Assembly (NCBI RefSeq): GCF_000832305.1
Contig: NZ_CP010537.1
Span: 2,046,001-2,110,000 of the forward strand
Source: Cupriavidus basilensis
GTDB lineage: Bacteria > Pseudomonadota > Gammaproteobacteria > Burkholderiales > Burkholderiaceae
Reading direction: 5' to 3'
DNA: 64,000 bases
Position 1 is the stretch's first letter. Every line of letters begins with the position of its first letter. Both the position numbers and the translations under genes were made by a program. The notes under the pieces were generated by a model. The model ran no database searches, was not told where the DNA came from, and worked only from the letters and a program-made list of their open reading frames with translations. Positions 13,634-33,453 of the stretch are shown here, piece by piece.

Positions 13634-13662
13634 ATATTAGGTAGCCTACCTATTACAATCAA
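13634..13662 (-). promoter_or_regulatory. Operator-bearing promoter of the MFS/GMC operon
   Basis: On the minus strand: -35 TTGATT (13657-13662), a 17-bp spacer, and -10 TAATAT (13634-13639). The palindrome TAGGTAGCCTACCTA (13638-13652) fills the downstream part of the spacer and touches the -10. The same design occurs upstream of both P450 genes. This layout is typical of repression by steric block. Confidence 0.75.
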
Positions 13663-13736
13663 ATAGGCGTTTACCCTCCCATCAACGAAGTCAGGTGGCT
13701 GATTTTGAGCCGCAAATGACACTTTTACGCTTTATC

Positions 13737-13782
13737 TTGACAGACCATCGTGGCGACCTACGCTCTATGTAATCGATTGCAT
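13737..13782 (+). promoter_or_regulatory. Promoter with LacI-type operator
   Basis: -35 TTGACA (13737-13742), a 16-bp spacer, and a weak -10 TACGCT (13759-13764). Directly downstream is ATGTAATCGATTGCAT (13767-13782), a near-perfect palindrome typical of LacI-family operators. The same arrangement, with the same 16-bp spacer, precedes the FAD-oxidase gene at 26850. It points toward the small ORF at 13882 and the P450 operon. Confidence 0.6.
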
Positions 13783-13881
13783 CGTGGAATGGGCTATGCG
13801 CCGATGCGAACGAGTGTTGAAAGACCTGCTTTTTTCTTGCGGTGGCCCCCCTAACTAAAGTCGATCACCCCGGAGGTAGCT

Positions 13882-13998
13882 ATGTCACTGATGGCAGCGG
13901 TACGCGAGGCGTTCAATCAATGGGAGCGCTTTCGATTCATGTCGATGTTCGAGTACCTCAGTGCCGAGTTAGGGGAGAGCTGGAGCCTATTTATTTGA
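13882..13998 (+). CDS. Possible small protein, 38 aa
   Basis: ATG at 13882 has a strong CGGAGG ribosome binding site 6-7 nt upstream, about 100 bp downstream of the LacI-type promoter. The product is acidic and aromatic-rich (AAVREAFNQWERFRFMSMFE) and ends at TGA 13996. I do not recognise it. It may be a true small protein or the start of a gene truncated by the rearrangement that placed the P450 cassette here. The good ribosome binding site is the main support. Confidence 0.4.
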   Translation: MSLMAAVREAFNQWERFRFMSMFEYLSAELGESWSLFI

Positions 13999-14540
13999 TT
14001 TGTAGGCTGCCAAAGCGAGGTCGCTTCGGCTTTCTCGCTTGCCTTCTTGCACCGGCTTCACTGTCCCCCCGCGCCTCTTTAACAACGCGTCGTGAGGCTG
14101 CCCCCTTGGTCAGCGAGTGGTGGCGATCGCGCACTTCTAACCCCACGTCCATGCGGGTGTTTTTTCACGCCTATGCATAGGTAAGAACCGAAGCCCTGCG
14201 ATCCCGACCTTACGGAAGGTCCCGGCGTCAAAGGTGGCCTCCAGCAGGTCCCAAGCGGGCCTCCGGCCGCGCCTCACTCGGTACCGACCTCTGTCGTCAG
14301 CCAGCCCGGCCGGACCGCATATCTACCCTGGGACGAGCTATAACAACCAGAAGGCAAACAGTCCTCGCGCATACCCAGTGGGTCACCGGCGGCATATCTT
14401 GACCACTGAAATCGGCGGTCGCCCGCCTTCAGGCCAACTGGGCTCCCCCAGTCTAGCCACGCCCTCCTCTCCCACCCCTGGTCCCGATCGAGATTTGTGA
14501 CGCGAGGTCAATCCTCTGCACCGATTAGGGTAAACCCCTT
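13999..14540. other. Gap without a recognisable gene
   Basis: This stretch of about 540 bp upstream of the P450 promoter has no reading frame with coding character. It may be debris from cassette insertion. Confidence 0.4.
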
Positions 14541-14569
14541 TTGCATATAGTAGGTAGGCTACCTAATAT
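14541..14569 (+). promoter_or_regulatory. Operator-bearing promoter of the first P450 operon
   Basis: -35 TTGCAT (14541-14546), a 17-bp spacer, and -10 TAATAT (14564-14569), with TAGGTAGGCTACCTA at 14551-14565 in the spacer. The start codon of the P450 is about 30 nt further on. The design is identical to 13634-13662 and 33425-33453. Confidence 0.8.
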
Positions 14570-14600
14570 GTACTCACAATTTCCCATCGGAGACATATTC

Positions 14601-15890
14601 ATGACCGCCCCCCAAACCCCCACGCAGTCGACTGGCTGCCCGTTTCACGCGGCCTCACCTGCGCAGTCCACGTGTCCGATGCACGCTGGCGGGGACAGCG
14701 GCATCCCCGACTTTCCGCCCGAACGGGTCGATCCTTTGTCGCCGCCGCCGGTGTACTTCCAGATGCAGCAAGGAAGCGGCTTGGGGCAAGCTAGGCTCTG
14801 GGACGGAAAGATCGCCTGGCTGATTACGCGCTATGACGACGTCCGCTCGGTCCTGTCTGACCCTCGCTTTAGTTCTGACATTACGAATCCCGGCTATCCC
14901 ACTGTCAGTGCTGCAATGAAAGTTGCCCGGGGTAGTAACCGGACCTTCATCACCATGGATGCACCCAAGCATGCAGAGCATCGGCGCATGCTGACAGGTG
15001 AATTCTCGATCCGCAAAATCGAGGCCCTTCGCCCGCGGATTCAGGCGATCGTAGACAAGCTGCTGGACGACTTCGCAACAAAGCCTCAACCCTCCGACCT
15101 GGTTAGCGCCTTTACGTTGGCTACGCCGGCATTGGCGATCTCAGAGTTGCTTGGCGTTCCGTACGAAGACCATGACTTCTTTCAGGAACTGGCGATGGTC
15201 CTGACGTCGAGTAGTGCGACGCTTGAGGAGGCCATCGCCGCAAATCATGAGTTGTGCGAGGTGTACCTGAAGGGCCTGGTGGCGAAGAGATCGGAGAACC
15301 CCGGGGAAGATATCCTCAGCCGCCTCATCGTCAATCACGTACGAAAGGGCGATATCACCGAAACGGACGTTGTTTCCCTTGCAAGGCTCTTGCTGATTGC
15401 CGGCCACGAGACCACGGCGAATACGACCGCAATGGGAGTGCTTTTCCTCCTGCAACGACCGGATATCTGGAATGAGCTTCGACAAGACACAAGCCTCGTT
15501 CCAAATGCGGTGGAAGAAATTCTGCGCTATCTGGATGTCACACATTCAGGAAAGCGTCGTGTCGCGACCGAGGACATTGTCGTGAACGGACAAATGATCC
15601 AGGCGGGCGACCCCGTTGTAGTGCTGAGTGTCTCGGCCAATCGCGACAGCTCGAAATTTGAAGATCCGAATGTGTTCGACCTTCGCCGAGATTCAAGGAC
15701 GCAGGTCTCGTTCGGATACGGCCCGCATCAGTGCATCGGTCAACCCCTCGCACGGCTCGAAATGCAGATCATGTTCACCGCCTTGCTGGAGCGGTTTCCG
15801 AACCTCGAGCTTGCTGTTCCCGTGGAAAGCCTTGAGTTCAAGGGCGATTCACTCATGTATGGCGTCAAGGAACTCCCTGTTCGCTGGTAA
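14601..15890 (+). CDS. Cytochrome P450 (class I, bacterial)
   Basis: This is a soluble P450 monooxygenase of 429 residues; the start at 14601 has a GGAGA ribosome binding site. The I-helix oxygen-binding motif AGHETT is at 267-272, ExxR is in EEILRYL, and the heme loop FGYGPHQCIG has its Cys ligand at residue 378. The N-terminal ~30 residues carry two Cys-Pro motifs (GCPFHA, TCPMHAGGD) before the fold begins at about 40. It is followed by its own ferredoxin and ferredoxin reductase, which makes a complete electron-transfer chain. Its position beside alcohol and aldehyde oxidising enzymes suggests that it opens a catabolic route. The substrate cannot be read from sequence. A second copy is at 33484. 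Confidence 0.93.
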   Translation: MTAPQTPTQSTGCPFHAASPAQSTCPMHAGGDSGIPDFPPERVDPLSPPPVYFQMQQGSGLGQARLWDGKIAWLITRYDDVRSVLSDPRFSSDITNPGYPTVSAAMKVARGSNRTFITMDAPKHAEHRRMLTGEFSIRKIEALRPRIQAIVDKLLDDFATKPQPSDLVSAFTLATPALAISELLGVPYEDHDFFQELAMVLTSSSATLEEAIAANHELCEVYLKGLVAKRSENPGEDILSRLIVNHVRKGDITETDVVSLARLLLIAGHETTANTTAMGVLFLLQRPDIWNELRQDTSLVPNAVEEILRYLDVTHSGKRRVATEDIVVNGQMIQAGDPVVVLSVSANRDSSKFEDPNVFDLRRDSRTQVSFGYGPHQCIGQPLARLEMQIMFTALLERFPNLELAVPVESLEFKGDSLMYGVKELPVRW

Positions 15891-15913
15891 TCCCGACTTA
15901 AATGAGAAGCATC

Positions 15914-16111
15914 ATGAAAATCACAATCTACCCCGAAAAGTGCTGCGGTTCTGGTCAATGTGTCGTCAACGCGCCGGATCTGTTCGACCAAAAGGACAAT
16001 GGCATCGTCATTCTCTTGAACGCAGAGCCGTCGGCTGACCAATTCGAATCAGCACGCCTGGCGGCTGGCATCTGCCCAGCGCTCGCCATCGAGATTCACG
16101 AGGATCAGTGA
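15914..16111 (+). CDS. Ferredoxin of the P450 system ([3Fe-4S] type)
   Basis: A 65-residue ferredoxin starting at 15914 (MKITIYPEKCCGSGQCV). Cys at 10/11, 16 and 54 (GICPA) match the C-X5-C-Xn-CP pattern of small [3Fe-4S]-type ferredoxins that serve bacterial P450s. It would carry single electrons from the reductase to the P450. It lies 23 nt after the P450 stop, and its TGA overlaps the ATG of the reductase. Confidence 0.9.
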   Translation: MKITIYPEKCCGSGQCVVNAPDLFDQKDNGIVILLNAEPSADQFESARLAAGICPALAIEIHEDQ

Positions 16112-17307
16112 TGAACTCCCCCGAGCACATCGTCGTTGTCGGCGCCTCGGCCGCCGGCATCACGGCAGCACGAGCGCTGCGCGCACAGGGCTGGGGAGGG
16201 CGGCTCACGCTGATTGGAAAGGAAGGCGGCATGCCCTATGACCGCCCTCCTCTTTCAAAGCGGCTGATGGCAGGAGAATGTCCGGTAGAGGCGCTCAACC
16301 TTGTGTCCGAAGACGGCATGAAGGCGCTGAACCTGCACTACCTGGACGGGACATCGGCCACCGGCCTCGATACGGACGCCAGTTCACTGCAACTCAGCAA
16401 CGGCTCCACACTTCAATATGATCGCTTGCTGATCGCCACGGGCGCGGACGCTCGAGTGATTCCCAACCTCAGCCAGGCGGCGAACTGCTACAGCCTGCGC
16501 AACTTAAACGACGCGCTGGCGATTCGGGAACATCTGACTGCCGGAAAGCGGGTACTAGTAGTCGGCGCGGGCTTCATCGGCACAGAGTTAGCGGCGATTG
16601 CAAAGACCAGCGGCTGTGAGGTGACCGTCATCGACAAGTCGAAAGTTCCTCTCGGGGCGCGAGTCGGGGATATCGTTGGGAAGCGGATCGAAAAACTCCA
16701 TGAAGCCAACGGCGTGGTTTTCCACAACGACTGCGAACTCAGGGAGGTGAAATGGCGTGACCGCACCATTACCGAAGTCCGCTTGGACACTGGGGTTGTG
16801 ATTGCTTGCGACGTAATTGTTGTGGCTATCGGCGCAGTTCCCAGCGTGCAGTGGTGCAGCGGATTAAACATCCGCAGCGGCGTAGTCTGCAATGAATACT
16901 GTGAAGCAGCCCCGAACGTATATGCCGCCGGCGATGCTGCAGAGTGGTTTCACAAAGGCTACGGCGAGCACATGCGTATTGAACACCGGACGAATGCAAG
17001 CGAACAGGCGATGGCCGCGGCAAAGAACATGCTCGGCTCTCGCGTTGAATACGCTCCGCTGCCGTTCTTCTGGTCGGATCAGTACCAGGTCCAAATCCAC
17101 AGCTACGGACGCATCGGCCCTCAATACACCGTTGAAGTTGTCGAAGGGGATCAACTGAAAGACGACTCCTGCATCTTTCGCTACTACCAGGGAGACGTTT
17201 TGATGGGCGTTCTTAGTTGGAACGCCAGTAGAAAAGCGCGTGAGCACATCAAGCTGTTGAAGGAGGAGTGGACGAAGAGCCACGCTCCAGCTGCGGTAGC
17301 AGGTTAA
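16111..17307 (+). CDS. NAD(P)H-dependent ferredoxin reductase
   Basis: The ATG at 16111 (a GTG at 16108 is also possible) gives 398 residues. The FAD-binding motif VVVGASAAGITAARALR is at the N-terminus and the NAD(P)-binding motif VLVVGAGFIGTELAA at about 150-165. The FAD contact near the C-terminal third reads NVYAAGDAAEW. This matches putidaredoxin-reductase-type flavoproteins, which reduce the P450 ferredoxin. It overlaps the ferredoxin stop codon by one base, so the three genes form one translationally coupled unit. Confidence 0.92.
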   Translation: MNSPEHIVVVGASAAGITAARALRAQGWGGRLTLIGKEGGMPYDRPPLSKRLMAGECPVEALNLVSEDGMKALNLHYLDGTSATGLDTDASSLQLSNGSTLQYDRLLIATGADARVIPNLSQAANCYSLRNLNDALAIREHLTAGKRVLVVGAGFIGTELAAIAKTSGCEVTVIDKSKVPLGARVGDIVGKRIEKLHEANGVVFHNDCELREVKWRDRTITEVRLDTGVVIACDVIVVAIGAVPSVQWCSGLNIRSGVVCNEYCEAAPNVYAAGDAAEWFHKGYGEHMRIEHRTNASEQAMAAAKNMLGSRVEYAPLPFFWSDQYQVQIHSYGRIGPQYTVEVVEGDQLKDDSCIFRYYQGDVLMGVLSWNASRKAREHIKLLKEEWTKSHAPAAVAG

Positions 17308-17338
17308 GGCTGTATTTCATAATAAAAGAGGAGACAAC

Positions 17339-18307
17339 ATGACAAAACCCGCTTCGGCTATCCGCAGAGCAGTCCTACTCTGCTCCCTGGCCCTGCCCTC
17401 CATCCTGTACGCCCAGCAATCTGGCCCGTTGCCGGTCCGGCTCTTTGTTGGCTACGGACCGGGCGGTGGCACCGACGTAGTTGCACGCGCAGTTGGCGAA
17501 GAGCTGGCAAAAATCTGGAATCGGCCCGTAATCGTCGAAAATCGGCCAGGCGCAAACGGGGCGATCGCCAGCAAGGCTGTCGCGCGAGCTGAACCGGACG
17601 GTTCGATCCTTCTGGTCATGCCCCCGTCCACGTTGATCATCGACGCAAACTTGCGCCCCACTGTTGCTGTCGATCCCACCAAGGAACTCACCCTTGTGAG
17701 CGGGCTAGCCGCAACCCCACTCGTTGTGGTGACCCCGGCTTCCGCGCCATACAACAACCTCGCTGACCTCATTAAGGCAGCTCGTGCGGCCAACGGGAAG
17801 TTCACGTACGGATGGGCCAACTTGGGCATGCGTGTCGGTATGGAGGAGTTCGCGCAAAAGACCGGGGTAAAGATGACCCCAGTCGGCTACAAGAGTGCTG
17901 GGCAAAGTGTCCCCGCTATCGTTTCAGGCGAGATCGATATGCTCATGATCGATATGGCACCGATCGCGCAACTCGTTAAGGCTGGAAAAGTGAAGGCCTT
18001 TGCCGTGTCGACGCCAGAACGCTCGCCTATGCTGCCAAACGTCCCTACATTCAAGGAAGCGGGGATTGACGTCCAGCTTACGGGAACCATCGCCCTGTAT
18101 GCGCCTGCCAAGATGCCCCAGAACGCAATCAAAAAAATGCAGAGCGATGTCGCTACGATTTTGAAGAACGGCGAGCTTCGCACGCGGATGCAAGGCACTG
18201 GAATGGAAGTCATTACGCAGTCCCCGGAGGATTTCGAGGGCTACCTTAAGCAGCGCAAGAAGAGCATTGATGCAGTAATTAAGGTCGGTGATTTTAAGCT
18301 CGAATAG
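17339..18307 (+). CDS. Bug/TctC-family periplasmic binding protein (1)
   Basis: A 322-residue solute-binding protein with a signal peptide at about residues 1-25 ([16 protein letters not shown]). The conserved first-domain motif [20 protein letters not shown] is followed by [18 protein letters not shown]. Bug proteins bind carboxylated solutes and normally pass them to TctAB-type membrane subunits, none of which is in the window. The start has a GAGGAG ribosome binding site. It lies 31 nt after the reductase and so is probably part of the P450 operon. Confidence 0.9.
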
Positions 18308-18369
18308 ATCGACCTCCGTCACAAGCACAGAATTTCGTAGCTAACCTCTTAGTCATTGGAGTACACGCT

Positions 18370-19797
18370 GTGTATCCAGAATTATCCCTTTACATCAATG
18401 GCGAATTTCTCGGCATTGAAGGCCGGCGACACCAGGACGTAGTCAATCCTGCGACGGAGGAGGTCGTTGGGCGACTGCCGCTCGCCACCCGCGAGGACCT
18501 CGACACCGCCGTCGAGGCGGCTCATCGAGCTTTCCTGACGTGGCGCGACTCATCGCCTTTGGAACGCAGTGCAATCTTGCGTAAAGTTGCGGAGCTCGCC
18601 CGTCAAAGGGCGCCGGAAATCGGCCGCAACATGACCATTGACCAGGGGAAGCCTCTGCACGAAGCCGTGGGCGAAGTAACGGTTTGTGCAGAGCATGCGG
18701 ACTGGCATGCAGAAGAGGCTCGGCGGATCTACGGCCGCGTGATCCCCAGCCGCAACCCTAACGTCCGCCAGCTCGTGCTACGTCAGCCGGTCGGAGTCTG
18801 CGCAGCCTTCACCCCTTGGAATTTTCCCTTCAATCAGGCGATCCGGAAAATCTCTGCCGCGCTTGGCGCAGGCTGTACGATCATTCTGAAGGGACCAGAA
18901 GAGACACCGAGTGCCGTGCTGGCGATCGCTCAACTGTTCCATGATGCGGGCCTTCCTCCTGGTTGCTTAAACATTGTATTTGGCGTCCCGGCGGAGGTGT
19001 CAGCACACCTCATTGCATCTCCGCTGGTCCAGAAGATCTCCTTTACGGGGTCCACTGCTGTTGGCAAACAACTAGCAGCTCTAGCAGGATCCCATATGAA
19101 GCGAATCACTATGGAGCTTGGTGGTCACTCCCCTGCAATCGTCTTCGACGATGCGGATGTCGATACCGCCGCCGAGATGCTTGCAAACTACAAGCTGCGA
19201 AACGCTGGTCAGGTATGCGTCTCGCCCTCCCGCTTCTTCGTCCAGCGCGGGGCTTACGATAGGTTCCTCAGGCGTTTTACGGACGTCATTGGCGCAGTGC
19301 GGGTCGGCAACGGTATAGACAGCTCGACACAGATGGGACCGCTCGCAAACCAACGCCGTGTTGCTGCAATGGAAGGGTTGATTGCCGACTCCAAAGCGCG
19401 CGGCGGAAAGGTTGTCGTGGGAGGGACCAGGTGCAGCGACACAGGACATTTCTTCGCGCCCAGCGTCGTTATAGACATTTCAGACGACTCCATGCTCATG
19501 ACTTGCGAGCCATTCGGCCCTGTCGCCCCGGTTGTAACGTTCGACGATCTGGATGAGGTGCTGGCACGGGCGAACAAACTGACTTACGGCCTGTCGTCTT
19601 ACGTGTTTACCGAGTCAGCGAAGACAGCGCATGCTGTCTCTACCCGCCTTGAGGCCGGCATGGTCAACATCAACCACTTTGGAAGCGCTCTCGCCGAAAC
19701 ACCGTTTGGAGGCATTAAAGATAGCGGTATCGGGAGTGAGGGTGGGACCGAGACGTTCGACGGCTATCTCGTCACGAAATTTGTAACTCAAGTGTAG
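18370..19797 (+). CDS. NAD(P)-dependent aldehyde dehydrogenase (SSADH-like)
   Basis: A 475-residue aldehyde dehydrogenase with a GTG start and a GGAG ribosome binding site 8 nt upstream. The general base Glu is at 249 in TMELGGHSP and the nucleophilic Cys at 283 in [12 protein letters not shown]. The cofactor-binding motif [11 protein letters not shown] and the C-terminal [15 protein letters not shown] fit the succinate-semialdehyde dehydrogenase branch. It would oxidise the aldehyde made by the GMC oxidase to an acid. It is the last gene of the P450 operon and is followed by a clear terminator. Confidence 0.92.
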
Positions 19798-19810
19798 ATC
19801 GGGGGCCGCA

Positions 19811-19830
19811 AAGGGCGATACGTCGCCCTT
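19811..19830 (+). other. Hairpin with TACG loop after aldehyde dehydrogenase
   Basis: AAGGGCGA and TCGCCCTT form an 8-bp stem closing a TACG tetraloop, a stable UNCG-class loop. There is no T-run after it. It may protect the 3' end of the P450 operon transcript just before the terminator at 19862. Confidence 0.5.
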
Positions 19831-19861
19831 TCCCCCGAAGCTACGTTCCCAGTCAGGTTTT

Positions 19862-19892
19862 GGCGCCTAAGTGAGTGTTAGGCGCCTTTTTT
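19862..19892 (+). terminator. Rho-independent terminator of the P450 operon
   Basis: A perfect 9-bp stem, GGCGCCTAA / TTAGGCGCC, with a 7-nt loop is followed by TTTTTT. It lies 65 nt after the aldehyde dehydrogenase stop, between convergent genes. Confidence 0.9.
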
Positions 19893-20054
19893 ATTAGCGT
19901 ATAGGTCGCGGCAGTGCGCCCCATATTGGGCGATGCGGTTGCTCTCGGCGACTCTGACAACTCCCTGCATGGCTCCGCAGTTGCAGCGCAAGCGCGGCCG
20001 GCTAGCGATAAGCCTTCTCGAATCGTGTCGTCTTCCAGGAAGATTTCGTTGGTA

Positions 20055-20501
20055 TTACTCGTGGTCCAGCCACGGTTCTCTTTTGAACATCTTATCGATG
20101 ATGGGGAACATCGCGATCACCGTCTGCAACTCCTCGGGCGTCAATCCCTCCATGCGCTTGCCCAGTGCCGCCGTCCGCTGTGCGGCCAATTTGCCGGCCA
20201 CAGCCCGGCCTTCATCAGTAATCTGAATCATGTTGTTGTACGAGCCGACGGGTGCGGAGCGCGCGATTAACTCGGCGTCGACCATCCGCCCGACAATCTG
20301 CGTCATCGTAGGCAATCTGACGCCTTCATTCCTGGCCAGATCGCTAACTCGCATCGGCCCTCTTACGAGCAATGCACTAAGAACAGCGCTCTGCGCGGGG
20401 GGCACGTGCGCCGCTCTCATTTCCCGCCGCAGCGCTACAACGATCCGCATCAAGCGGGGTCTAAGTTCGTCCGCAAGCATTTCAACCGTAGGTTCTGTCA
20501 T
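20055..20501 (-). CDS. MarR-family transcriptional regulator (1)
   Basis: The start at 20501 (MTEPTVEMLADELRPRL) gives 148 residues; the long in-frame extension upstream lacks coding character. The winged HTH is visible at residues about 40-100: RGPMRVSDLARNEGVRLPTM, then IVGRMVDAELIARS. MarR proteins repress by binding short palindromes and respond to small aromatic or organic-acid ligands. It is the closest unassigned regulator to the P450 operon and so a candidate for binding the TAGGTAGGCTACCTA sites. That link is an inference. Confidence 0.85.
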   Translation of the reverse strand: MTEPTVEMLADELRPRLMRIVVALRREMRAAHVPPAQSAVLSALLVRGPMRVSDLARNEGVRLPTMTQIVGRMVDAELIARSAPVGSYNNMIQITDEGRAVAGKLAAQRTAALGKRMEGLTPEELQTVIAMFPIIDKMFKREPWLDHE

Positions 20502-20520
20502 GTCTACAAAAAGGGGGCAA

Positions 20521-20551
20521 TCACTGAGCAGATGATATAACGATTCAGTGA
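20521..20551. promoter_or_regulatory. Inverted repeat upstream of marR-type gene
   Basis: TCACTGA (20521-20527) and TCAGTGA (20545-20551) are exact inverted 7-mers 17 bp apart, about 20 bp before the marR start. They could be an autoregulatory operator or a 5'-UTR hairpin. The sequence differs from the P450 operator. Confidence 0.35.
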
Positions 20552-20807
20552 AGAATGATCGCGCGAAGTACCTGGAGGCACCGAGTCGATATGGTCCGAC
20601 TGGTGAGGGTAGCGACCACGCAGACAGCGGCGGCGCGTGAAGGGGTTCTGTGCCTGTGGCCGGGTAGCAACTCAAGGCCGGGCCTTGTCGCGTTCGTTCG
20701 CGATGGCCGGAGCACCAATCTTGATGGAGAGGGATGACGAGACGAGGCGCTGGCTGGCGCTCTCGTCTCAAGGCGTCGACGCTTGATCCGCCGACGCGCG
20801 GAGCTTG

Positions 20808-21332: not shown

Positions 21333-21459
21333 AAAATGCTCCTCTTATCTTGATGTGACTAACTTTTCGCCGACCGCGTTACTTGCAGGAGGCGAAACAC
21401 TACTGCATGGGCCGCTCTCGCAGCCCGTGCCGACTTCGACGCCGTTTCTTGCCCTGCCG

Positions 21460-23803: not shown

Positions 23804-23804
23804 T

Positions 23805-25648: not shown

Positions 25649-26530
25649 TCAACTTAGCGAGTCGGTGAGCCACTCCATAAAGGCGGCGCACTCCCATCTC
25701 TCCAGGGCCCCAGGTTCCCAGCATAAGTAGTGCGCCATCGGTGAAGGCACGGATCGATCCGATATGCGGATGAGTCGCCCCCCCTCTAGCCATGACTGCG
25801 CCATACGGGTCCTCACTAGTGCCACGCCGAACCCGCACGCGGCTGCGTCATAGAGAAGCCCTAGATCGTTGAATTGAGCGCCCACATGCGGCTCCGTTCT
25901 CGTCAATCCACATGAGGAGAACCATGTCGTCCAAGGCTCAAGCGGGCTACGTATCAGACGCGCCTGGTCGATTTCACCCGCCATTTCGAAGCCTTCGAAG
26001 GGGCCGAACTCGTTGAGATAGGTAGGGCTGCAAGCCGGCGCCACCTCCTCCGAGAGAACGACGCGATGATCGACGTCCGCATATCCGCCGGCGCCGTACC
26101 GGATTTCCAAATCGGATGGCTCGGCTGTGACGTCCAGGAATGGGATGGAGACCTGCAAGATAAGGTCGATGTCCGGATACTTGTTGCGGAACAGTTCCAG
26201 TTTGGGCATCAGGAACTGCCTGGAGAAAGTTGGGGTCACCGCGACCCGCAGTCGCGTGGAAGAGGCTTTTCCATTTTTGACCGGCATCTGCTGTAGCGCA
26301 GCGAGGCCGCTTCGGACATTCGCCAGGTACGCTGCACCATGTGCAGAAAGCGTGAAGTCACTCCGCCCGAAGAGTTCAACACCGAGGTGAGATTCAAGCT
26401 GGCGGATTCGATGACTCACGGCGCTGGTTGTTACACACAACTCGTCGGCGGCACGTGTGGCGCTCCGAAGCCTTGCAACCGTCTCGAAGGTGACAAGACA
26501 TTGAATGGGCGGGATGTGTTGCAGGGCCAT
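25649..26530 (-). CDS. LysR-family regulator (GcvA-like) (1)
   Basis: A 293-residue LysR protein with a GGAGAG ribosome binding site. The N-terminal HTH reads ATRAADELCVTTSAVSHRIR with QLESHLGVELFGR. The start IPPIQCLVTFETVARL and the C-terminal FMEWLTDSLS are GcvA-like. The effector domain spans about 90-290. It is upstream of and co-directional with glcDEF, and divergent from the FAD-oxidase gene. It may control either set. Confidence 0.88.
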   Translation of the reverse strand: MALQHIPPIQCLVTFETVARLRSATRAADELCVTTSAVSHRIRQLESHLGVELFGRSDFTLSAHGAAYLANVRSGLAALQQMPVKNGKASSTRLRVAVTPTFSRQFLMPKLELFRNKYPDIDLILQVSIPFLDVTAEPSDLEIRYGAGGYADVDHRVVLSEEVAPACSPTYLNEFGPFEGFEMAGEIDQARLIRSPLEPWTTWFSSCGLTRTEPHVGAQFNDLGLLYDAAACGFGVALVRTRMAQSWLEGGRLIRISDRSVPSPMAHYLCWEPGALERWECAAFMEWLTDSLS

Positions 26531-26849
26531 ATCTTCTCTCCGTTTGGTGGGCTACCCAGGGCGGATATGCCGCATGTCATCGCTTGAGGCCTAGGGAGCG
26601 GCCACACTTCTTGCTGCTCTGTCGCTCGAGCACCATGCCAACGCTGCAACGAGCAAGCGCCCCCAGATTGCTTGCTCAGGATCGACTCACTGGGTCCTCA
26701 GGCAAGGACGTACGTGACGCCCTGCAAGGGAAGACCACCAAGTAAGTCGCTCTCCAACCCACAGTGACCTCGCCGCGGGAAGGTCTCTTAGCGATCCGAT
26801 CTCTTCGTCGACTCCTGCTCCAACCCATGGCCGCGACTGCGTTAACTGC

Positions 26850-26894
26850 TTGACATTATGCCGCACCAATCTAAACTTATGTAATCGATTGCAC
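26850..26894 (+). promoter_or_regulatory. Promoter with LacI-type operator (proximal copy)
   Basis: -35 TTGACA (26850-26855), a 16-bp spacer and -10 TAAACT (26872-26877) are followed at once by ATGTAATCGATTGCAC (26879-26894). The operator overlaps the expected transcription start. It matches the set at 13737-13782. Confidence 0.75.
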
Positions 26895-26954
26895 GCAGTG
26901 CTGTTTTCGCCTCATCACCGTACTGGCATTGGTTATTTACAGTCTCTGATGCAG

Positions 26955-26981
26955 GTTACCGTAACGTATGTAATCGATTAC
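26955..26981. promoter_or_regulatory. Second LacI-type operator and adjacent palindrome
   Basis: GTAATCGATTAC (26970-26981) is a perfect 12-bp palindrome 21 bp upstream of the start codon. GTTACCGTAAC (26955-26965) is a second perfect palindrome just before it. The centre-to-centre distance from the first operator is about 89 bp, suitable for repression by looping by a LacI-type tetramer. The regulators at 31040 and 49878 are candidates. Confidence 0.65.
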
Positions 26982-27002
26982 CACATCACACAGGAGGCAA
27001 CA

Positions 27003-28607
27003 ATGCAGGAACGTCGTCGTAAGTTTTACGGGTGGGGCTATGAGGGTGACACCGTCACGCCGGACGAAATCCGGGAGTTCGAGGCAGCGTGGACACGCTT
27101 GCTGGGTGTCGAGCACTTCGAAGCGACACCTTTTCCGACGCCCGAAGAAATTTCGCTGCGCAAACCTCGCGTACAGCTGCCCGCGTCGCTTCGCGAAATC
27201 TGCACAAGCGATCATTACGACCGCCTGTATCACACCTACGGCGCGGGCACCATGGATGTTGCGCGCGCAATGCGCCGGGAATTTTCCAACCCGCCGGACG
27301 TCATCGCCTACCCGCGCACTGAGCAGGACATCGTGGACCTGTTCGACTGGTGCGGGCGCCAGAACGTTGCTGCAGTTCCGTACGGCGGCGGCACCAGCGT
27401 CGTGGCCGGCGTGAATCCGCCCGAGCACGATCGTTACCGTGGCGTGGTGTCCATCGACATGAAGCACTTCAACAAAGTGCTGGAGGTAGACCAAACATCG
27501 CAGGCCGCGCGCATTCAAGCGGGCGTCCTTGGCCCGGAGCTGGAACGACAGCTCAAGCCCACCGGCCTGACCATGCGATTCTTCCTGCAAGCGTGGGAGT
27601 TCTCGTCACTGGGGGGTTGGATCGCAACGCGAGCAGCAGGCCACTTTGCGACCGCGTTCACTCAGATCGACGACCACGTCGAGAGCATGCGAGTGGTAAC
27701 GCCCCAGGGTGCCATTGAATCCCGACGTTTCCCGGTATCGGGTTCGGGACCCAATCCGGATCGACTTTTCCTCGGCTCCGAAGGCGCACTGGGCATCATT
27801 ACCGAGGCGTGGGTCAAGCTTCACCGCCGGCCGGTCTTCCGCAAGCAGGTGACCGTACGTTTCCGTGACTATGCGCGCGCTGTCGAGGCCACACGGGTAC
27901 TGTCTCAATCTGGACTGAACCCTGCCAATGCCCGCCTTGTGGAACGCGAAGAAGCCTTGTACACGGGTTCGAGCGACGGCAGCTATGACATTCTCGTGCT
28001 GGGATTCGAGTCCGCCGACCACCCGGTCGAGGCACGCCTGAAGCGAGCACTGGAAATTTGCGCGGAGTGCGGCGGCGAATGGGACGATGATCCGGTCAGC
28101 GGAAACCAAGGTGGTGCGGACGCTGCGACATCGAGCTGGCGAAACAAGTTCCTGCGCGGCCCATACCTGCGCGAGTACGCCATTGCTCGCGGCGTCATGC
28201 GCGAGACCATGGAAACCGCGTGCACGTGGGACAAGTTCGCCGCTCTTCACGCGCACGTCAAGGCAGAAACGCATCGGGCCATTCGCGAAGTTACCGGCCG
28301 CCCGGGTTCGGTGACTTGCCGCTTTACCCACCTCTACCCTGATGGCCCTGCGCCATATTTCACGTGGTTTGCCTATGGCGATAAGGCTCGATTGCCCGAG
28401 CAGTTCCAAGCGATCAAACGCATTGGAGAGCAAGCCATGGTGGACGCAGGCGGTACGGTGACCCACCACCATGCGCTTGGTCGGGACCATCGCCCTTGGT
28501 ACGACAAGGAACGGCCGGAGCTGTTCTGCACCGCGCTAAAGGCCGCCAAGCAGGCCTTTGATCCGCACCAGGTCTTGAACCCTGGCGTGCTGTTCGACCC
28601 GAGCTAA
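27003..28607 (+). CDS. FAD-binding oxidase, alkyl-DHAP synthase / vanillyl-alcohol oxidase superfamily
   Basis: The start at 27003 has a textbook AGGAGG ribosome binding site and gives 534 residues. The N-terminus RRRKFYGWGYEGD and the domain order resemble alkyl-dihydroxyacetonephosphate synthase-like proteins. The PCMH FAD-binding motif is PYGGGTSVVAGVNPP, with SSLGGWIATRAAGHFATAFT further on. HHHALGRDHRPWY near the C-terminus carries the conserved His cluster of that group. In bacteria these proteins are often annotated as FAD-linked hydroxy-acid oxidases, so the reaction is uncertain. It is the first gene of the operon with the CoA-transferase and Bug protein. Confidence 0.85.
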   Translation: MQERRRKFYGWGYEGDTVTPDEIREFEAAWTRLLGVEHFEATPFPTPEEISLRKPRVQLPASLREICTSDHYDRLYHTYGAGTMDVARAMRREFSNPPDVIAYPRTEQDIVDLFDWCGRQNVAAVPYGGGTSVVAGVNPPEHDRYRGVVSIDMKHFNKVLEVDQTSQAARIQAGVLGPELERQLKPTGLTMRFFLQAWEFSSLGGWIATRAAGHFATAFTQIDDHVESMRVVTPQGAIESRRFPVSGSGPNPDRLFLGSEGALGIITEAWVKLHRRPVFRKQVTVRFRDYARAVEATRVLSQSGLNPANARLVEREEALYTGSSDGSYDILVLGFESADHPVEARLKRALEICAECGGEWDDDPVSGNQGGADAATSSWRNKFLRGPYLREYAIARGVMRETMETACTWDKFAALHAHVKAETHRAIREVTGRPGSVTCRFTHLYPDGPAPYFTWFAYGDKARLPEQFQAIKRIGEQAMVDAGGTVTHHHALGRDHRPWYDKERPELFCTALKAAKQAFDPHQVLNPGVLFDPS

Positions 28608-28641
28608 TTAGTTAGAAACTCAAAAAAGAGGAGTAGGAGAT

Positions 28642-29865
28642 ATGGCAGGCCCCCTTGCAGGTATCAAGGTCCTAGACTTGAGCCGGATCCTTGCTGGACC
28701 CTGGAGCACGCAACTATTGTCCGACCTGGGCGCTGACGTGATGAAGGTTGAGCGTCCCGGCACCGGCGATGACACGCGAGCTTGGGGCCCGCCGTTCCTT
28801 ACTCGTGAGGATGGCACGACGACGGAAGAGTCGGCGTACTTCCTTTGCGCCAATCGCGGGAAGCGTTCGATCACTCTGGATGTCAGCAGCAAGGTCGGTC
28901 AGGATTTGCTGCACGAGCTAGTCAAAGATTGCGACGTCTTCGTTGAGAACTACAAGTTCGGCGATATGCAACGTTACGGGTTGGACTTCAAGACCCTGAG
29001 TGAGATCAATCCTCGGCTCGTCTACTGCTCCATCACCGGCTTCGGGCAGACGGGCCCATACCGCAAGCGGGCTGGATACGATTTCGTGGTGCAAGCCATG
29101 GGCGGGCTGATGAGCATCACAGGCGAGCGCGACGGCGTCCCCGGTGGCGGCCCGCAAAAATGCGGGGTGCCCATATCGGACTTGATGACTGGCATGTATG
29201 CAAGCGTTGCAATTGTCAGCGCGCTATTTGAGCGAGTCGGCAGTGGCCGCGGGCAGTACATCGATATGAGCCTGCTGGATACGCAGGTGGCGTGGCTGGC
29301 AAACCAGGCCTCGAACTATTTGGTGGGCGGGAGCCACCCGCGTCGTTGGGGCAACGCGCACCCCAATCTCGCACCTTATCAGTCATTCCCTGCAAGCGAT
29401 GGCTCTCTGATCGTAGCAGTCGGTAATGACCGGCAGTTCCGAGCCATGTGCGAAGCGCTGGGTTTAATCAATCTTCCGGATGATGACCGCTATCGACGCA
29501 ATGCGGATCGTCTAAAGAACCGTGAAAGTCTTGTGGAGGTGCTCTCGGCTCGCTTTGAAGAAGAAGAGAGAGACACGTGGCTCAAACTGCTGGAATCGGT
29601 CGGCGTACCTTGTGGCCCGATCCAGAGCATTCCAGAAGCACTGGAGGATCCCCATATCCGGGCGCGTGAAATGGTTTTCTCTTTGCCCCACAGCAGCGGT
29701 GCAAGCGCGCCCCAGGTTGCGAACCCTATCAAGTTCTCTCGCAGCAGTATCGACTACCTTCGCGCGCCCCCAGCGCTGGGCGAACACACTGAAACCATCC
29801 TGAAAAATGAGCTCGGGAAGTCTGTGGAGCAAATTGAGGCAATGCGCCGCGATGGGACGATCTGA
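28642..29865 (+). CDS. Class III CoA-transferase (CaiB/BaiF family) (1)
   Basis: A 407-residue protein with AGGAG ribosome binding sites. It opens MAGPLAGIKVLDLSRILAGP, then LSDLGADVMKVERPGTGDD, the family signature. The catalytic Asp is expected in the SDLMTGMYA region. These enzymes move CoA from one acyl-CoA to a free acid, here probably activating the acid made by the aldehyde dehydrogenase or FAD oxidase. Closely related to the copy at 39760. Confidence 0.9.
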   Translation: MAGPLAGIKVLDLSRILAGPWSTQLLSDLGADVMKVERPGTGDDTRAWGPPFLTREDGTTTEESAYFLCANRGKRSITLDVSSKVGQDLLHELVKDCDVFVENYKFGDMQRYGLDFKTLSEINPRLVYCSITGFGQTGPYRKRAGYDFVVQAMGGLMSITGERDGVPGGGPQKCGVPISDLMTGMYASVAIVSALFERVGSGRGQYIDMSLLDTQVAWLANQASNYLVGGSHPRRWGNAHPNLAPYQSFPASDGSLIVAVGNDRQFRAMCEALGLINLPDDDRYRRNADRLKNRESLVEVLSARFEEEERDTWLKLLESVGVPCGPIQSIPEALEDPHIRAREMVFSLPHSSGASAPQVANPIKFSRSSIDYLRAPPALGEHTETILKNELGKSVEQIEAMRRDGTI

Positions 29866-29923
29866 CGTGTAATCCGCCCGACCACAGTGATCACCATAAA
29901 GATCACGTTCAAAGGAGACAGAC

Positions 29924-30910
29924 ATGCATCGATTGCTACGAATTGCGGGGGCATTAGCCGTTTGCGGAGTGACACTGACCATCGGTCTGGCCGCCGCCCA
30001 CGCTAAGGAATGGCCGGTCCAGCCGATTCGGGTCGTTCTTCCATATCCCCCTGGCGGCGCCTCAGACGTGACCGCCAGGCTCCTAAGCGCTAAGCTTAGC
30101 CAGGCATGGGGAGAGTCTGTTGTTGTGGAGAACCGGCCTGGCGCAAACGGCATCATCGCTAATGAAGCCGTTGCGAAGGCGCAGCCTGACGGCTACACCG
30201 TGCTGATGGCCAACCTTGGGCCGAATGCCATCAACCCGGCCGTATACGGGAGACTTCCTTATGACACGCTGAAAGACTTTACGCCAGTTGTCTTGGTGAC
30301 AAAGGTGCCGCTCATTATCGTCACGGCAGCAAATTCGCCGGTGAAGGACCTGCGCCAACTGGTCTCATTAGCAAAGGCCAAGCCAGGACAGATTACCTTT
30401 GGATCTGCAGGCAACGGTTCGGGCAGCCATCTGGCCGGGGAACTCCTTAGTACCATGGCTGGCGTCAAGATGAACCACGTTCCCTATAAGGGAGACGCGC
30501 CTTCGCTCACAGACGTGCTCGGTCAGCAGATCAATGTTGCCCTTCCCACCGCGCTTGCTGGAATGCCACATGTCAAGAGTGGAAAACTCAGGGCTCTTGC
30601 GGTCACGAGCAAGACTCGATTGCCGGCACTGCCCGATGTGCCGACGGTAGATGAAGCGCTCGGGATAAGCGGATACGAAGCCGTTTCTTGGGGTGGATTT
30701 ATGGTGCCGACCGGGACCTCACCAGCCATCGTTGCTAAGATGAACAGCCAGTTCAACAAAGCCCTTCAGGATCCGGAGGTCCGCGACAAGCTGATGGCTC
30801 AAGGCGCGCAGATCGCAGGCGGCACCCCGGAAGCATTCGATGCGTTTCTGCGCACCGAAGTTACGAAATGGAAGCGCGTGGCTGATTCAGCAAAGGTCCG
30901 GCTCGACTAG
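29924..30910 (+). CDS. Bug/TctC-family periplasmic binding protein (2)
   Basis: A 328-residue binding protein with a signal peptide ending near AAHAKEW. The family motifs are VLPYPPGGASDVTARLLSAK and [20 protein letters not shown]. It follows the CoA-transferase by 58 nt. A nearly identical copy lacking its N-terminal third is at 49137-49753, showing that this gene and the LacI gene behind it were duplicated. No TctAB transporter subunits are nearby. Confidence 0.9.
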   Translation: MHRLLRIAGALAVCGVTLTIGLAAAHAKEWPVQPIRVVLPYPPGGASDVTARLLSAKLSQAWGESVVVENRPGANGIIANEAVAKAQPDGYTVLMANLGPNAINPAVYGRLPYDTLKDFTPVVLVTKVPLIIVTAANSPVKDLRQLVSLAKAKPGQITFGSAGNGSGSHLAGELLSTMAGVKMNHVPYKGDAPSLTDVLGQQINVALPTALAGMPHVKSGKLRALAVTSKTRLPALPDVPTVDEALGISGYEAVSWGGFMVPTGTSPAIVAKMNSQFNKALQDPEVRDKLMAQGAQIAGGTPEAFDAFLRTEVTKWKRVADSAKVRLD

Positions 30911-30930
30911 CCCTCACCGGGAATGCCGGT

Positions 30931-30958
30931 CCGTCGTCGGGATACCCCCCGACGACGG
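30931..30958 (+). other. GC-rich hairpin between bug and lacI genes
   Basis: CCGTCGTCGGG and CCCGACGACGG form a perfect 11-bp stem with a 6-nt loop. No T-run follows, so it is a hairpin of uncertain role, perhaps a mRNA 3' end or an attenuator before lacI. In the duplicate at about 49770-49800 the stem is mutated. Confidence 0.5.
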
Positions 30959-31039
30959 AAACTGCCTGTGGACTACCAAGGTCGTTACAATGACGGCAGT
31001 CGGCCGATATCCCAGGCTGAAGATAACCGCTGATCCGAT

Positions 31040-32059
31040 ATGGTGAATGTCAAGCAAGTCGCCCTCCTCGCCGGCGTTTCCTCGGCAACAGTCTCCCGTG
31101 CACTGACATCGCCGGATCGGCTGCGACCTGACACGCTGGAGCGCGTGCAGAACGCCATCGCAAGCCTCAACTACGTCCCGTCTTCCTCGGCTCGGGACCT
31201 GCGTCAAGGGCGCACGCGATCGGTCGGCATCATTGCGCCGACACTGATGAACGAGCTTTACGCGAAAGCGGTCGATACCTTAGAGGCGCAGCTCGATCGG
31301 CTCGGATACACCGTTTTATTGACGTGCCACCGGGACGACAGTGAGACAGAACTACGCTGCGCGCGCGCGCTTTTGGAGCGCAGAGTCGACGGAATCGCCA
31401 TTATCGGGTCACAGCATCACCCTGACGTCTTCTCGCTAATCCACAAGCATGCCATTCCGTATGTCCTAATGTGGGCCGTCGATCGTGAGGGTATGCATCC
31501 CACGGTGGGATATGACAATCGCTTGGCGATGCGCAGGTTGACGAGCTATTTGGTCAAACAGGGACATCGAAAGTTTGCCGTCCTCCCAGGGCCACTAGAG
31601 ACTCAATTTCTCTCCTCTCAACGACTTCTGGGCATCCAAGACGTCCTCAGTGAGAACGGCATTTCGATACCCGACGACCGCATTCTCCCGACACCGTACG
31701 AAGCATCTGCCGTCCGGCAAGCGGTTCGGACCTGTCTCGAGCGTAATGACTCGCTGCCGCATCAGGAACAGCCGACTGCCCTGATATGCATCAATGACTT
31801 CGTTGCTGTGGCAGCGATCGCGGAGTGCCGCACATTGGGACTATCGGTTCCGAGCGACATCTCAGTTACAGGCTTCGGCGACTGGCAGATGGCGGAACTG
31901 ATGACGCCCGCACTCACGACCGTACACTCGAATCCCGTTCTGATTGGCGAACTTACTTCTCGTAACCTGGTTGATCAGATTGAAGGCGGGTCCAAACGCA
32001 TTCAGACCGAGTTCGAGCCTGACCTTGTAGTTCGCGAAAGTACGGCGCCGCCCCAATAG
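31040..32059 (+). CDS. LacI-family transcriptional regulator (1)
   Basis: A 339-residue LacI/GalR repressor. The HTH and hinge are clear: VKQVALLAGVSSATVSRALT, then LNYVPSSSARDLRQGRTRS. The ligand domain starts at about 60 (VGIIAPTLMNELYAKAVDTL) and ends with the typical TTVHSNPVLIGELTSRNL. It should bind the GTAATCGATTAC-type operators at 26879 and 26970, and perhaps 13767. It is nearly identical to the copy at 49878. Confidence 0.92.
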   Translation: MVNVKQVALLAGVSSATVSRALTSPDRLRPDTLERVQNAIASLNYVPSSSARDLRQGRTRSVGIIAPTLMNELYAKAVDTLEAQLDRLGYTVLLTCHRDDSETELRCARALLERRVDGIAIIGSQHHPDVFSLIHKHAIPYVLMWAVDREGMHPTVGYDNRLAMRRLTSYLVKQGHRKFAVLPGPLETQFLSSQRLLGIQDVLSENGISIPDDRILPTPYEASAVRQAVRTCLERNDSLPHQEQPTALICINDFVAVAAIAECRTLGLSVPSDISVTGFGDWQMAELMTPALTTVHSNPVLIGELTSRNLVDQIEGGSKRIQTEFEPDLVVRESTAPPQ

Positions 32060-32416
32060 TTGGTGAGCCAAACTACGTTTTGTCGCTACGGACGGAACTC
32101 AGCCGTCGCTCTAGCTAGGCCCTCACCGGGCACAAAGCGGTCGAAGCATACGTTGTCCAGCTATTAAATGAAGCGTTGCAGACAACGTTCTGAGGGAATT
32201 CTTCAGTCATGCGGGGCGCCTAATGGATATCAGTCTCTGCTCCATCCTGATGTCCGCTTAGGGTGGGCCGGTAAGCGCCGGTCATGCCACTGACCTTTGA
32301 TTGAGGCGTCAGGGTACCGCCGTTGCCAACTAAGTCGAACGTGTCCCAAAAAGCGGACACATTCGTCCCCTCCGGCGCGAGCCAGAAGCGTCACCGCACG
32401 AAAAGGGAGTTCGAAC
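32060..32416. other. Gap without a recognisable gene
   Basis: About 357 bp between convergent lacI and marR genes. I see short imperfect repeats (GTCCGCTTAGGG, AAAAAGCGGACAC) but no gene or clear terminator. Confidence 0.35.
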
Positions 32417-32860
32417 CTATTTCGGCCACCCCGCTTTGGCTGCCGCCGCATCCAGCGCACGAGAAAATCGCCCGATGTCTTCCGGCCGGAACTCGGCCAG
32501 AAACAGTTCTTTGACCGCCGCCTCGTAGATGCCCCACATCTTCTTGCGCAAGGCCTTACCTTGCCGTGTGACGGACACGAACGCGGCGCGGCCGTCTTCC
32601 TCTGACCGGATACGGGTCACCAGCTCTTCACGCTCCAGCCGGTCAATCAGGCGAGTCAGGTTGTACCGCTCGATGGCAAGCACATCGGCCAGCTCATGCA
32701 TCCGGCGGCTTTCCTCCGGCCCGCTTTCAATCCCCCACAGCACGTCGTACCACGCGTAGACAGGCAGTCCAGCCTCGGCAAGACGCCGATCCACCTCACG
32801 TATCAAGGCCCGGTGCGACCGTACAAACGAAAACCACAAATCCGGCTTCTCAGTCGACAT
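32417..32860 (-). CDS. MarR-family transcriptional regulator (2)
   Basis: A 147-residue MarR protein: winged HTH at about 45-105 (RMHELADVLAIERYNLTRLI, then DRLEREELVTRIRSEEDGRA). It is divergent from the truncated aceE-like gene, and a 13-bp inverted repeat lies between them. This pairing of MarR with a pyruvate dehydrogenase E1 homologue is known from other proteobacteria. The start at 32860 is the only suitable one. Confidence 0.88.
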   Translation of the reverse strand: MSTEKPDLWFSFVRSHRALIREVDRRLAEAGLPVYAWYDVLWGIESGPEESRRMHELADVLAIERYNLTRLIDRLEREELVTRIRSEEDGRAAFVSVTRQGKALRKKMWGIYEAAVKELFLAEFRPEDIGRFSRALDAAAAKAGWPK

Positions 32861-32874
32861 GGTATCTCCAATAG

Positions 32875-32931
32875 TTGCAGTTGCAATTATGCCGCAGAGC
32901 GCTCACAATGCCCAGACGATTGCAACTGCAA
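32875..32931. promoter_or_regulatory. MarR-type operator pair
   Basis: TTGCAGTTGCAAT (32875-32887) and ATTGCAACTGCAA (32919-32931) are exact reverse complements 31 bp apart in the divergent region. Each half also contains a local TTGCA/TGCAA symmetry. They fit a MarR dimer site in front of each divergent gene. Confidence 0.65.
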
Positions 32932-33011
32932 TTTATTTGAAGCGCAATGGCCACGCCTATCCGACCGGGCCTGATGCGAACCGAAGCCCCGTCAATCCCA
33001 TGGAGACAGAG

Positions 33012-33377
33012 ATGAATGCCCCGGTGTTGCCGCTACACGTATTGCCGCTGGATGTGGACCCGCAGGAAACCCAGGAATGGATTGAGGCCCTGGCCGCCGT
33101 GACCGAAGTGGAAGGCCGCGAACGCGCCCACTACCTGATCGGCCGCCTGCATGAATCGGACGCGGCCCGACACGGGGATTTCCATGGCGCAATCACGACG
33201 CCCTACGTCAATACGATTGCCGAATCGGGCGAGCAGCCGTACCCAGGCGACACCTCGATCGAGCGCCGACTGGCCGCCATGGCGCGCTGGAATGCCATGG
33301 CGATGGTGTTGCGGGCGGGCAAGCACTCCAACGTCGGCGGGCATATCGCCACATATGGGTTCTCCGCTTTCTTCTGA
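33012..33377 (+). pseudogene. Truncated pyruvate dehydrogenase E1 (aceE-like)
   Basis: The start at 33012 has a GGAGA ribosome binding site. The first ~115 residues match the N-terminus of AceE-type 2-oxoacid dehydrogenase E1: PQETQEWIEALAAVTEVEGR, TTPYVNTIAESGEQPYPGD, RRLAAMARWNAMAMVLRAGK and HSNVGGHIATYG. A full E1 has about 890 residues. Here the frame is lost right after GGHIATYG and stops at 33377, about 50 bp before the promoter of the second P450 operon. The gene was evidently cut by arrival of that cassette, and the rest is not in the window. Confidence 0.8.
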
Positions 33378-33424
33378 TGTCTACGGGTCGACCTTCGATT
33401 CTGTTGTTGAGGGTAAACCCCCCT

Positions 33425-33453
33425 TTGCGCCACATAGGTAGGCTACCTAACAT
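33425..33453 (+). promoter_or_regulatory. Operator-bearing promoter of the second P450 operon
   Basis: -35-like TTGCGC (33425-33430), a 17-bp spacer, and -10 TAACAT (33448-33453), with TAGGTAGGCTACCTA at 33435-33449. The operator is fully conserved while the -35 and -10 boxes have each drifted by a base or two from the first copy. Confidence 0.75.

What the first reader, a model, noticed from the sequence alone, without database searches (positions are those of the whole stretch)
13634..33453. One 15-bp palindrome inside the spacer of three distant promoters defines an uncharacterised regulon
TAGGTAG[G/C]CTACCTA occurs at 13638-13652 (before MFS/GMC, minus strand), 14551-14565 (before P450 copy 1) and 33435-33449 (before P450 copy 2). 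In all three it sits in a 17-bp spacer, with recognisable -35 boxes (TTGATT, TTGCAT, TTGCGC) and -10 boxes (TAATAT, TAATAT, TAACAT), touching the -10. The operator is better conserved than the promoter boxes, which implies selection. Transporter, alcohol oxidase and both P450s would be derepressed together. The MarR at 20055-20501 is the best nearby candidate.
Basis: partly seen in the sequence, partly recalled or inferred. Interest (0 to 1): 0.75.

Follow-up and report, generated by a model that had tools for sequence, protein, structure and literature searches.

The report
Local switch for mobile P450 genes
Three promoters in a gene island shared among Cupriavidus and Pandoraea bacteria carry the same 15-letter mirror-image DNA site, probably the docking site of one repressor that switches on two P450 enzymes, a transporter and an alcohol-oxidising enzyme together; it is a tidy example of a well-known kind of gene control.

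Summary
TAGGTAG[G/C]CTACCTA occurs exactly three times in the 8.42-Mb genome, only at the three stated promoters (about 0.02 expected). It lies in a 17-bp spacer and overlaps the first two bases of each -10 box. Of 100 genomes searched (own included), 9 have it, exactly three times each; 91 have none.

Two corrections. The three promoters are homologous copies of one ~54-bp module, so they are not independent. Selection is still supported: P450-1 and P450-2 share only 46% of four-fold sites, yet all 15 operator bases.

The best regulator is the MarR at 20055-20501. In two other cases its homologues appear to share a contig with homologues of this P450, and three other local regulators have different palindromes at their own promoters. 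The operator is not upstream of the MarR itself, and no binding was tested.

Most likely reading: a MarR-type repressor controls a mobile, P450-based, probably ether- or glycol-type catabolic cluster. New member of a known kind; modest interest.

The parts
13638..13652 (-). operator copy 1 (TAGGTAGGCTACCTA read in the sense of MFS transcription)
13634..13662 (-). predicted MFS/GMC core promoter: -35 TTGATT 13662-13657, 17-bp spacer, -10 TAATAT 13639-13634
   Evidence: not mapped experimentally
13666..13677 (-). second shared element AGGGTAAACGCC, 3 bp upstream of -35
12189..13565 (-). MFS transporter, metabolite/H+ symporter-like
   Evidence: TIGR00883 376 bits, below its cut-off of 443
10571..12196 (-). 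GMC oxidoreductase (choline-dehydrogenase-like), downstream of and overlapping the MFS gene
   Evidence: start taken from the annotation of a near-identical record
14527..14538 (+). second shared element AGGGTAAACCCC, 2 bp upstream of -35
14541..14569 (+). predicted P450-1 core promoter: -35 TTGCAT 14541-14546, 17-bp spacer, -10 TAATAT 14564-14569
   Evidence: not mapped experimentally
14551..14565 (+). operator copy 2 TAGGTAGGCTACCTA
14601..15890 (+). cytochrome P450-1, CYP105-like
15914..16111 (+). small single-cluster ferredoxin
16111..17307 (+). ferredoxin reductase
17339..18307 (+). TctC-type solute-binding protein
18370..19797 (+). aldehyde dehydrogenase (nearest NCBIfam model succinate-semialdehyde dehydrogenase, below its cut-off)
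20055..20501 (-). MarR-family regulator, best candidate for the operator-binding protein
33410..33421 (+). second shared element AGGGTAAACCCC, 3 bp upstream of -35
33425..33453 (+). predicted P450-2 core promoter: -35 TTGCGC 33425-33430, 17-bp spacer, -10 TAACAT 33448-33453
   Evidence: not mapped experimentally
33435..33449 (+). operator copy 3 TAGGTAGGCTACCTA
33484..34800 (+). cytochrome P450-2 (78% identical to P450-1, open frame)
34821..35010 (+). second ferredoxin copy, frame broken near 34954-34970
35114..35203 (+). ferredoxin-reductase remnant of copy 2

Best explanation
The 15-bp palindrome is the operator of a local repressor, most likely the MarR-family dimer encoded at 20055-20501. 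Bound in the spacer and over the start of the -10 box, it would keep RNA polymerase off three promoters. When a substrate or product of the pathway binds the repressor, all three would open together: the MFS transporter with the GMC alcohol dehydrogenase; P450-1 with ferredoxin, reductase, solute-binding protein and aldehyde dehydrogenase; and P450-2. The promoters are copies of one ~54-bp module, which also holds a second conserved box just upstream of a weak -35. That box is probably the site of an activator or a further contact of the same system. The regulon travels as one unit on a mobile island and serves catabolism, probably of an ether- or glycol-type compound. Shown by sequence: the sites, their geometry, their restriction to this cluster, the shared module, the constraint relative to the P450 genes. 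Indicated: linkage of this MarR to the P450 elsewhere (equal contig lengths). Inferred: that the MarR binds the site, repression, the inducer, the activator, the substrate class.
For: Three exact sites in 8.42 Mb, all at start-proximal predicted promoters of catabolic genes. Exactly 3 per carrier, 9 of 100 genomes. P450-1 and P450-2 have dS 1.13, dN 0.13 and 46% identity at 178 four-fold sites, yet 15/15 operator bases agree: 7e-6 if promoter bases drifted at that rate. MarR clusters and P450 clusters have the same longest contig in two cases: P0133 and P0014, 11,127 bp, same source; P0141 and P0019, 65,465 bp, both named Paucimonas sp. MAG. In residues 53-68 of this MarR, 8 of 16 are invariant and 4 more nearly so among 11 sequences. 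MarR-32417, IclR-44429 and AraC-8622 have different palindromes at their own promoters. Site, module and an identical MarR protein are also in Pandoraea terrigena. No listed TetR_N match lies in the window (150 of 258 candidates scored).
Against: The operator is absent upstream of the MarR gene; instead a different perfect 7-1-7 palindrome, CAAGGCCGGGCCTTG at 20673-20687, lies 172-186 bp upstream of its start and could be its own site or a terminator. In two records (G053 and C. campinensis NZ_CP043441) the MarR gene has a 1-base gap in a C run while the operators are intact: sequencing error or real loss. Carriers are 99.0-100% identical in the main aligned blocks, so no diverged operator could be compared. 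No contig length is shared between the MarR clusters and the listed MFS clusters. The promoter hexamers are weak.
Confidence: 0.58

Rival explanations
1. The palindrome is a real operator, but its protein is encoded elsewhere (for example one of the host's many TetR regulators, or another regulator of the island).
For: A 7-1-7 palindrome fits several regulator families (recalled), and the own genome has 72 TetR_N matches. The MarR gene lacks the site at its own promoter and has a different palindrome, CAAGGCCGGGCCTTG, upstream.
Against: No listed TetR match in the window. The island is shared by different genera, Cupriavidus and Pandoraea. The MarR appears linked to the P450 outside the island. 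IclR-44429, MarR-32417 and AraC-8622 have other palindromes at their own promoters.
Confidence: 0.29
2. The palindrome is conserved only because three promoters are copies of one another; it has no regulator.
For: The three promoters align beyond the palindrome: P1 against the MFS promoter 85% over 54 bp, P1 against P2 75% over 80 bp.
Against: P450-1 and P450-2 are old copies (dS 1.13), and their four-fold sites agree at 46%, against 15/15 in the operator and 12/12 in the upstream element. The sequence is a perfect palindrome placed identically against the -10 box.
Confidence: 0.08
3. The palindrome is an activator site (MerR-like spacer binding) rather than a repressor site.
For: It lies between -35 and -10, where MerR-type activators bind (recalled), and the -35 boxes are weak.
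Against: The spacer is 17 bp, not the 19-20 bp of MerR promoters (recalled), and the dyad is off-centre, overlapping the -10. The apparently linked regulator matches MarR.
Confidence: 0.05

Closest known systems
MarR-family ligand-responsive repressors of catabolic genes (HpaR, OhrR, SlyA types)
   Same: Small winged-helix protein (Pfam MarR) beside a catabolic operon; palindromic site over the promoter core. OhrR-type 7-1-7 operators are recalled, not fetched.
   Different: No copy of this operator at its own promoter; it would control two P450 units and a transporter 20 kb apart; HpaR model 30.9 bits against a cut-off of 121.2.
Rv0880-group MarR proteins of mycobacteria (PDB 4yif, NCBIfam NF052438)
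   Same: Among the nearest named relatives by profile.
   Different: 47.1 bits against a cut-off of 220: not a member. Its operator was not found in the passages read of PMC6437058.
CYP105-type three-component P450 systems (P450-SU1 / vitamin D3 hydroxylase)
   Same: P450 + small ferredoxin + ferredoxin reductase; best solved-structure match is P450-SU1.
   Different: Proteobacterial mobile island; the P450-ferredoxin-reductase cassette has one intact copy and two decayed ones.
Plasmid clusters with a related GMC dehydrogenase (Sphingopyxis macrogoltabida, Xanthobacter dioxanivorans; ether degraders, recalled)
   Same: GMC 70.8% and 64.1% identical, in stretches with aldehyde dehydrogenases and FAD-binding oxidoreductases.
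   Different: Those two loci have no match to the 15-mer within 3 mismatches, and no P450 is annotated in the stretches read.

Membership tests
MarR family (PF01047) | MarR winged-helix domain above the curated cut-off | tested here: met
   33.6 bits against 24.6, in the longer ORF 20055-20771
MarR family (PF01047) | binds a palindrome at the regulated promoter | not testable with these tools
   the palindrome is present; binding was not assayed
MarR family (PF01047) | same operator at its own promoter (usual, not obligatory; recalled) | tested here: not met
   no 15-mer match at up to 4 mismatches upstream of 20501; a different palindrome CAAGGCCGGGCCTTG lies at 20673-20687
Rv0880 equivalog (NF052438) | score above the curated cut-off | tested here: not met
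   47.1 against 220 bits
HpaR equivalog (TIGR02337) | score above the curated cut-off | tested here: not met
   30.9 against 121.2 bits
Class I three-component P450 system | P450, ferredoxin and ferredoxin reductase genes adjacent | tested here: met
   14601-17307
CYP105 | more than 40% identity to a named CYP105 (naming convention, recalled) | tested here: inconclusive
   best PDB match P450-SU1, E 1.7e-103, identity not printed; listed Streptomyces plasmid P450s are 38-50% identical and bear no CYP names
Regulon (shared operator in several promoters) | same operator, same promoter position, restricted to the target genes | tested here: met
   3 of 3 exact genome sites at these predicted promoters
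Regulon (shared operator in several promoters) | co-regulated expression | not testable with these tools
   no expression data

The most novel reading that the evidence does not exclude
A self-contained mobile catabolic regulon that grew by copying one ~54-bp dual-control promoter cassette (activator box AGGGTAAAC[C/G]CC directly upstream of a weak -35, plus a repressor operator in the spacer) in front of new genes, so that transporter, alcohol oxidation and two diverged P450s answer one signal wherever the island lands.
Probability: 0.3. Interest if true: 0.5.

Novelty: new member of a known kind. Interest (0 to 1): 0.36.

Why it matters
It names a testable operator-regulator pair for a P450 pathway that moves between soil bacteria. 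If the MarR responds to the pathway compound, the pair would be a ready biosensor and would help identify the substrate. The shared promoter module also offers a case of a regulon built by copying a promoter, at a locus where the age of the gene copies can be measured.

Tried and rejected
Looked for diverged carriers of the operator. Exact 15-mer: 9 of 100 genomes, all the same genus; 1 of 369 genomes of the class, the own one (the backward control had one hit in each of 5 genomes there and in 1 genome); IMG/VR: 17 stretches with one site each, not followed, taken as chance. At up to 3 mismatches: 16 loci with relatives of the P450, GMC, MFS or MarR, of which 1 had a 3-mismatch hit (L037) and 15 none; 50 further loci (L101-L150, 548 kb), of which L101, a carrier, had the exact site and two (L114, L145) a 3-mismatch hit. 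That is near the chance level of 0.30 per 64 kb; L145 holds a weak MarR relative and was not followed. So no diverged DNA carrier was found. The 20 stretches around ~40-46% P450 relatives in other genera of the family (one is Paraburkholderia sp. PREW-6R by its coordinates, the rest are unnamed) show no MarR-20055 match at E 1e-6. A MarR profile in 399 genomes of the order gave strong hits in the two carriers only; the other 19 of 21 genomes had E 1e-15 or weaker.

Literature (open-access library only): the 15-mer, 0 papers; MarR/P450/operator term sets, 0 papers; CYP105 with Cupriavidus, 3 papers, titles and abstract starts only, none on this locus as far as these show; a PEG-dehydrogenase set, 0; Rv0880 with MarR, 25 papers, 15 listed, passages of PMC6437058 only.

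Considered and set aside as regulator: MarR-32417, IclR-44429 and AraC-8622 (different palindromes at their own promoters; these palindromes come from the same simple scan and are unproven); the protein at 35216 (no Pfam match better than E 0.2); LacI-31040 (LacI sites usually have an even centre, recalled; its paralogue at 49878 has no 15-mer near it). LysR-25649 was not tested beyond the palindrome scan.

Island identity mended to 99.0-100%.
Full report
What was checked. The 15-mer TAGGTAG[G/C]CTACCTA is present exactly at the three stated places, and the next best match in the window has three mismatches. Among the 15 perfect 7-1-7 palindromes of the window (13 distinct half-sites) it is the only one that repeats. 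In the whole genome (8,421,483 bases, two contigs) there are three exact sites, all in this window, and one further hit with two mismatches, which lies inside open reading frames. The backward control gives 26 hits at up to two mismatches and none exact, so the true motif is rare outside this cluster. Base composition predicts 0.008-0.02 exact sites. Of 100 genomes searched, 9 including the own one have the site, each exactly three times; 91 have none. Of 369 genomes of the class only the own genome has it.

Geometry. In each predicted promoter the palindrome lies in a 17-bp spacer and overlaps the first two bases of the -10 box: TTGATT-17-TAATAT (13662-13634, minus), TTGCAT-17-TAATAT (14541-14569), TTGCGC-17-TAACAT (33425-33453). 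The -35 boxes of the P450 promoters match the consensus at three of six positions (own count), and the sigma-70 scan at 9 of 12 found none in the two regions given. The promoters are predictions, not mapped.

A second element, AGGGTAAAC[C/G]CC, stands 2-3 bp upstream of each -35 box, and AGGGTAAAC occurs nowhere else in the 64 kb on either strand. The three promoters are homologous beyond the palindrome: P450-1 against MFS 85% over 54 bp (E 7e-9), P450-1 against P450-2 75% over 80 bp. They look like copies of one module, so the three sites are not independent events.

Is the operator under selection? The near-identity of the carriers says nothing: the main blocks align at 99.0-100%. The comparison inside the genome does. 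P450-1 and P450-2 are 78% identical, with dN 0.13, dS 1.13 and 46% identity at 178 four-fold sites. At that rate 15 of 15 identical operator bases has a probability of 7e-6 and 12 of 12 in the upstream element 8e-5. Both figures assume that promoter bases drift like four-fold sites, and the second element was picked after it was seen, so they are guides. Both elements look constrained.

Surroundings. The MFS unit (MFS 12189-13565, GMC 10571-12196) and the P450-1 unit (P450 14601-15890, ferredoxin 15914-16111, reductase 16111-17307, TctC 17339-18307, aldehyde dehydrogenase 18370-19797) are divergent. P450-2 (33484-34800) has an open frame, but its ferredoxin is frame-broken and its reductase is a remnant; a third remnant (ferredoxin end, reductase start) lies at 45085-45331. 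So the ferredoxin-reductase part existed in at least three copies. P450-1 matches P450-SU1 best among solved structures. The GMC is 70.8% identical to one on a Sphingopyxis macrogoltabida plasmid and 64.1% to one in Xanthobacter dioxanivorans, in stretches with aldehyde dehydrogenases and FAD-binding oxidoreductases; outside the island the MFS is closest among plasmids to one of Mycobacterium dioxanotrophicus, 51%. With the glycolate-oxidase genes nearby, an ether- or glycol-type substrate is a reasonable inference, no more. That these species degrade ethers is recalled or read from their names.

Mobility. In four of the five genomes compared (G014, G053, G001, G009) the window aligns over 60 kb or more at 99.8-100%; in G024 the shared part runs from 6861 to 53758 in three blocks at 99.0-99.8%, plus one 1-kb block at 91%. 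In Cupriavidus campinensis NZ_CP043441 45 kb align at 99.9%, and in Pandoraea terrigena the stretch 12161-36978. Of the 13 sequences that span the MarR gene, window included, 11 encode the identical protein; G053 and C. campinensis share a 1-base gap in a C run.

Which regulator. MarR-20055 (148 aa; Pfam MarR 33.6 bits) has few relatives: 20 protein clusters at E 1e-12, island copies included, and at E 1e-10 in 300 genomes of the order only the two carriers. P0133 (63%) has the same longest contig length, 11,127 bp, and source as P450 cluster P0014 (66%); P0141 (52%) and P450 cluster P0019 (56%) both come from a 65,465-bp contig of a Paucimonas MAG. Only the longest contig of a cluster and the best 120 P450s are shown, so the other clusters cannot be judged. 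Residues 53-68, in the DNA-binding domain, have 8 invariant and 4 nearly invariant positions of 16 in 11 sequences. Elimination: MarR-32417 has ATTGCAACTGCAAT-type sites, IclR-44429 has twin GTWCACNNNGTGWAC sites and AraC-8622 has CAGTTTGATCAAACTG at its own promoter; no listed TetR_N match lies in the window. Against it: the MarR gene has no copy of the 15-mer upstream but a different perfect palindrome, CAAGGCCGGGCCTTG (20673-20687), and MFS homologues share no listed contig length with it.

Mechanism. A dimer in the spacer and over the -10 edge would exclude RNA polymerase; ligand release would open all three units at once. The upstream element beside a weak -35 suggests an activator as well; this is inference. 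Membership: the regulator is a MarR protein, but not a member of the Rv0880 or HpaR equivalogs by their cut-offs.

Verdict. A real, local, mobile regulon with a probable MarR repressor. The kind is well known; searches of the open-access library did not bring up this pair.

Noticed in passing
45085-45331: Remnant of a third P450-associated cassette: the end of a ferredoxin gene followed by the start of a ferredoxin reductase, right after the IclR gene.
   Followed up: partly
34821-35203: Second ferredoxin copy is frame-broken and its reductase truncated, while P450-2 stays open with dN/dS about 0.11 against P450-1; P450-2 would have to borrow electrons from the first ferredoxin.
   Followed up: partly
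20673-20687: Perfect palindrome CAAGGCCGGGCCTTG between the gamma carbonic anhydrase gene and MarR-20055: a terminator arm or a separate regulator site.
   Followed up: no
44392-44426: Twin palindromes GTTCACTAGGTGAAC and GTACACAGGGTGTAC in the gap between an IclR gene and a divergent TctC gene: a likely separate IclR operator pair.
   Followed up: no
32871-32932: Two ATTGCAACTGCAAT-like palindromes beside MarR-32417 and a 172-aa ORF without Pfam match whose end reads like part of a pyruvate dehydrogenase E1 (by eye, recalled).
   Followed up: no
29924-32059 and 49097-50900: Duplicated TctC-LacI module, about 87-88% identical at the DNA level.
   Followed up: no
55608-57341: SAVED-domain protein (CBASS-type defence sensor) on the same mobile region, near a TniQ match below cut-off at 58249-59577; an integrase lies at 4957-6291.
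   Followed up: no
G053 and L083: In two records the MarR-20055 gene has a 1-base gap in a C run while the operators are intact; in G053 P450-1 also matches only in part.
   Followed up: partly
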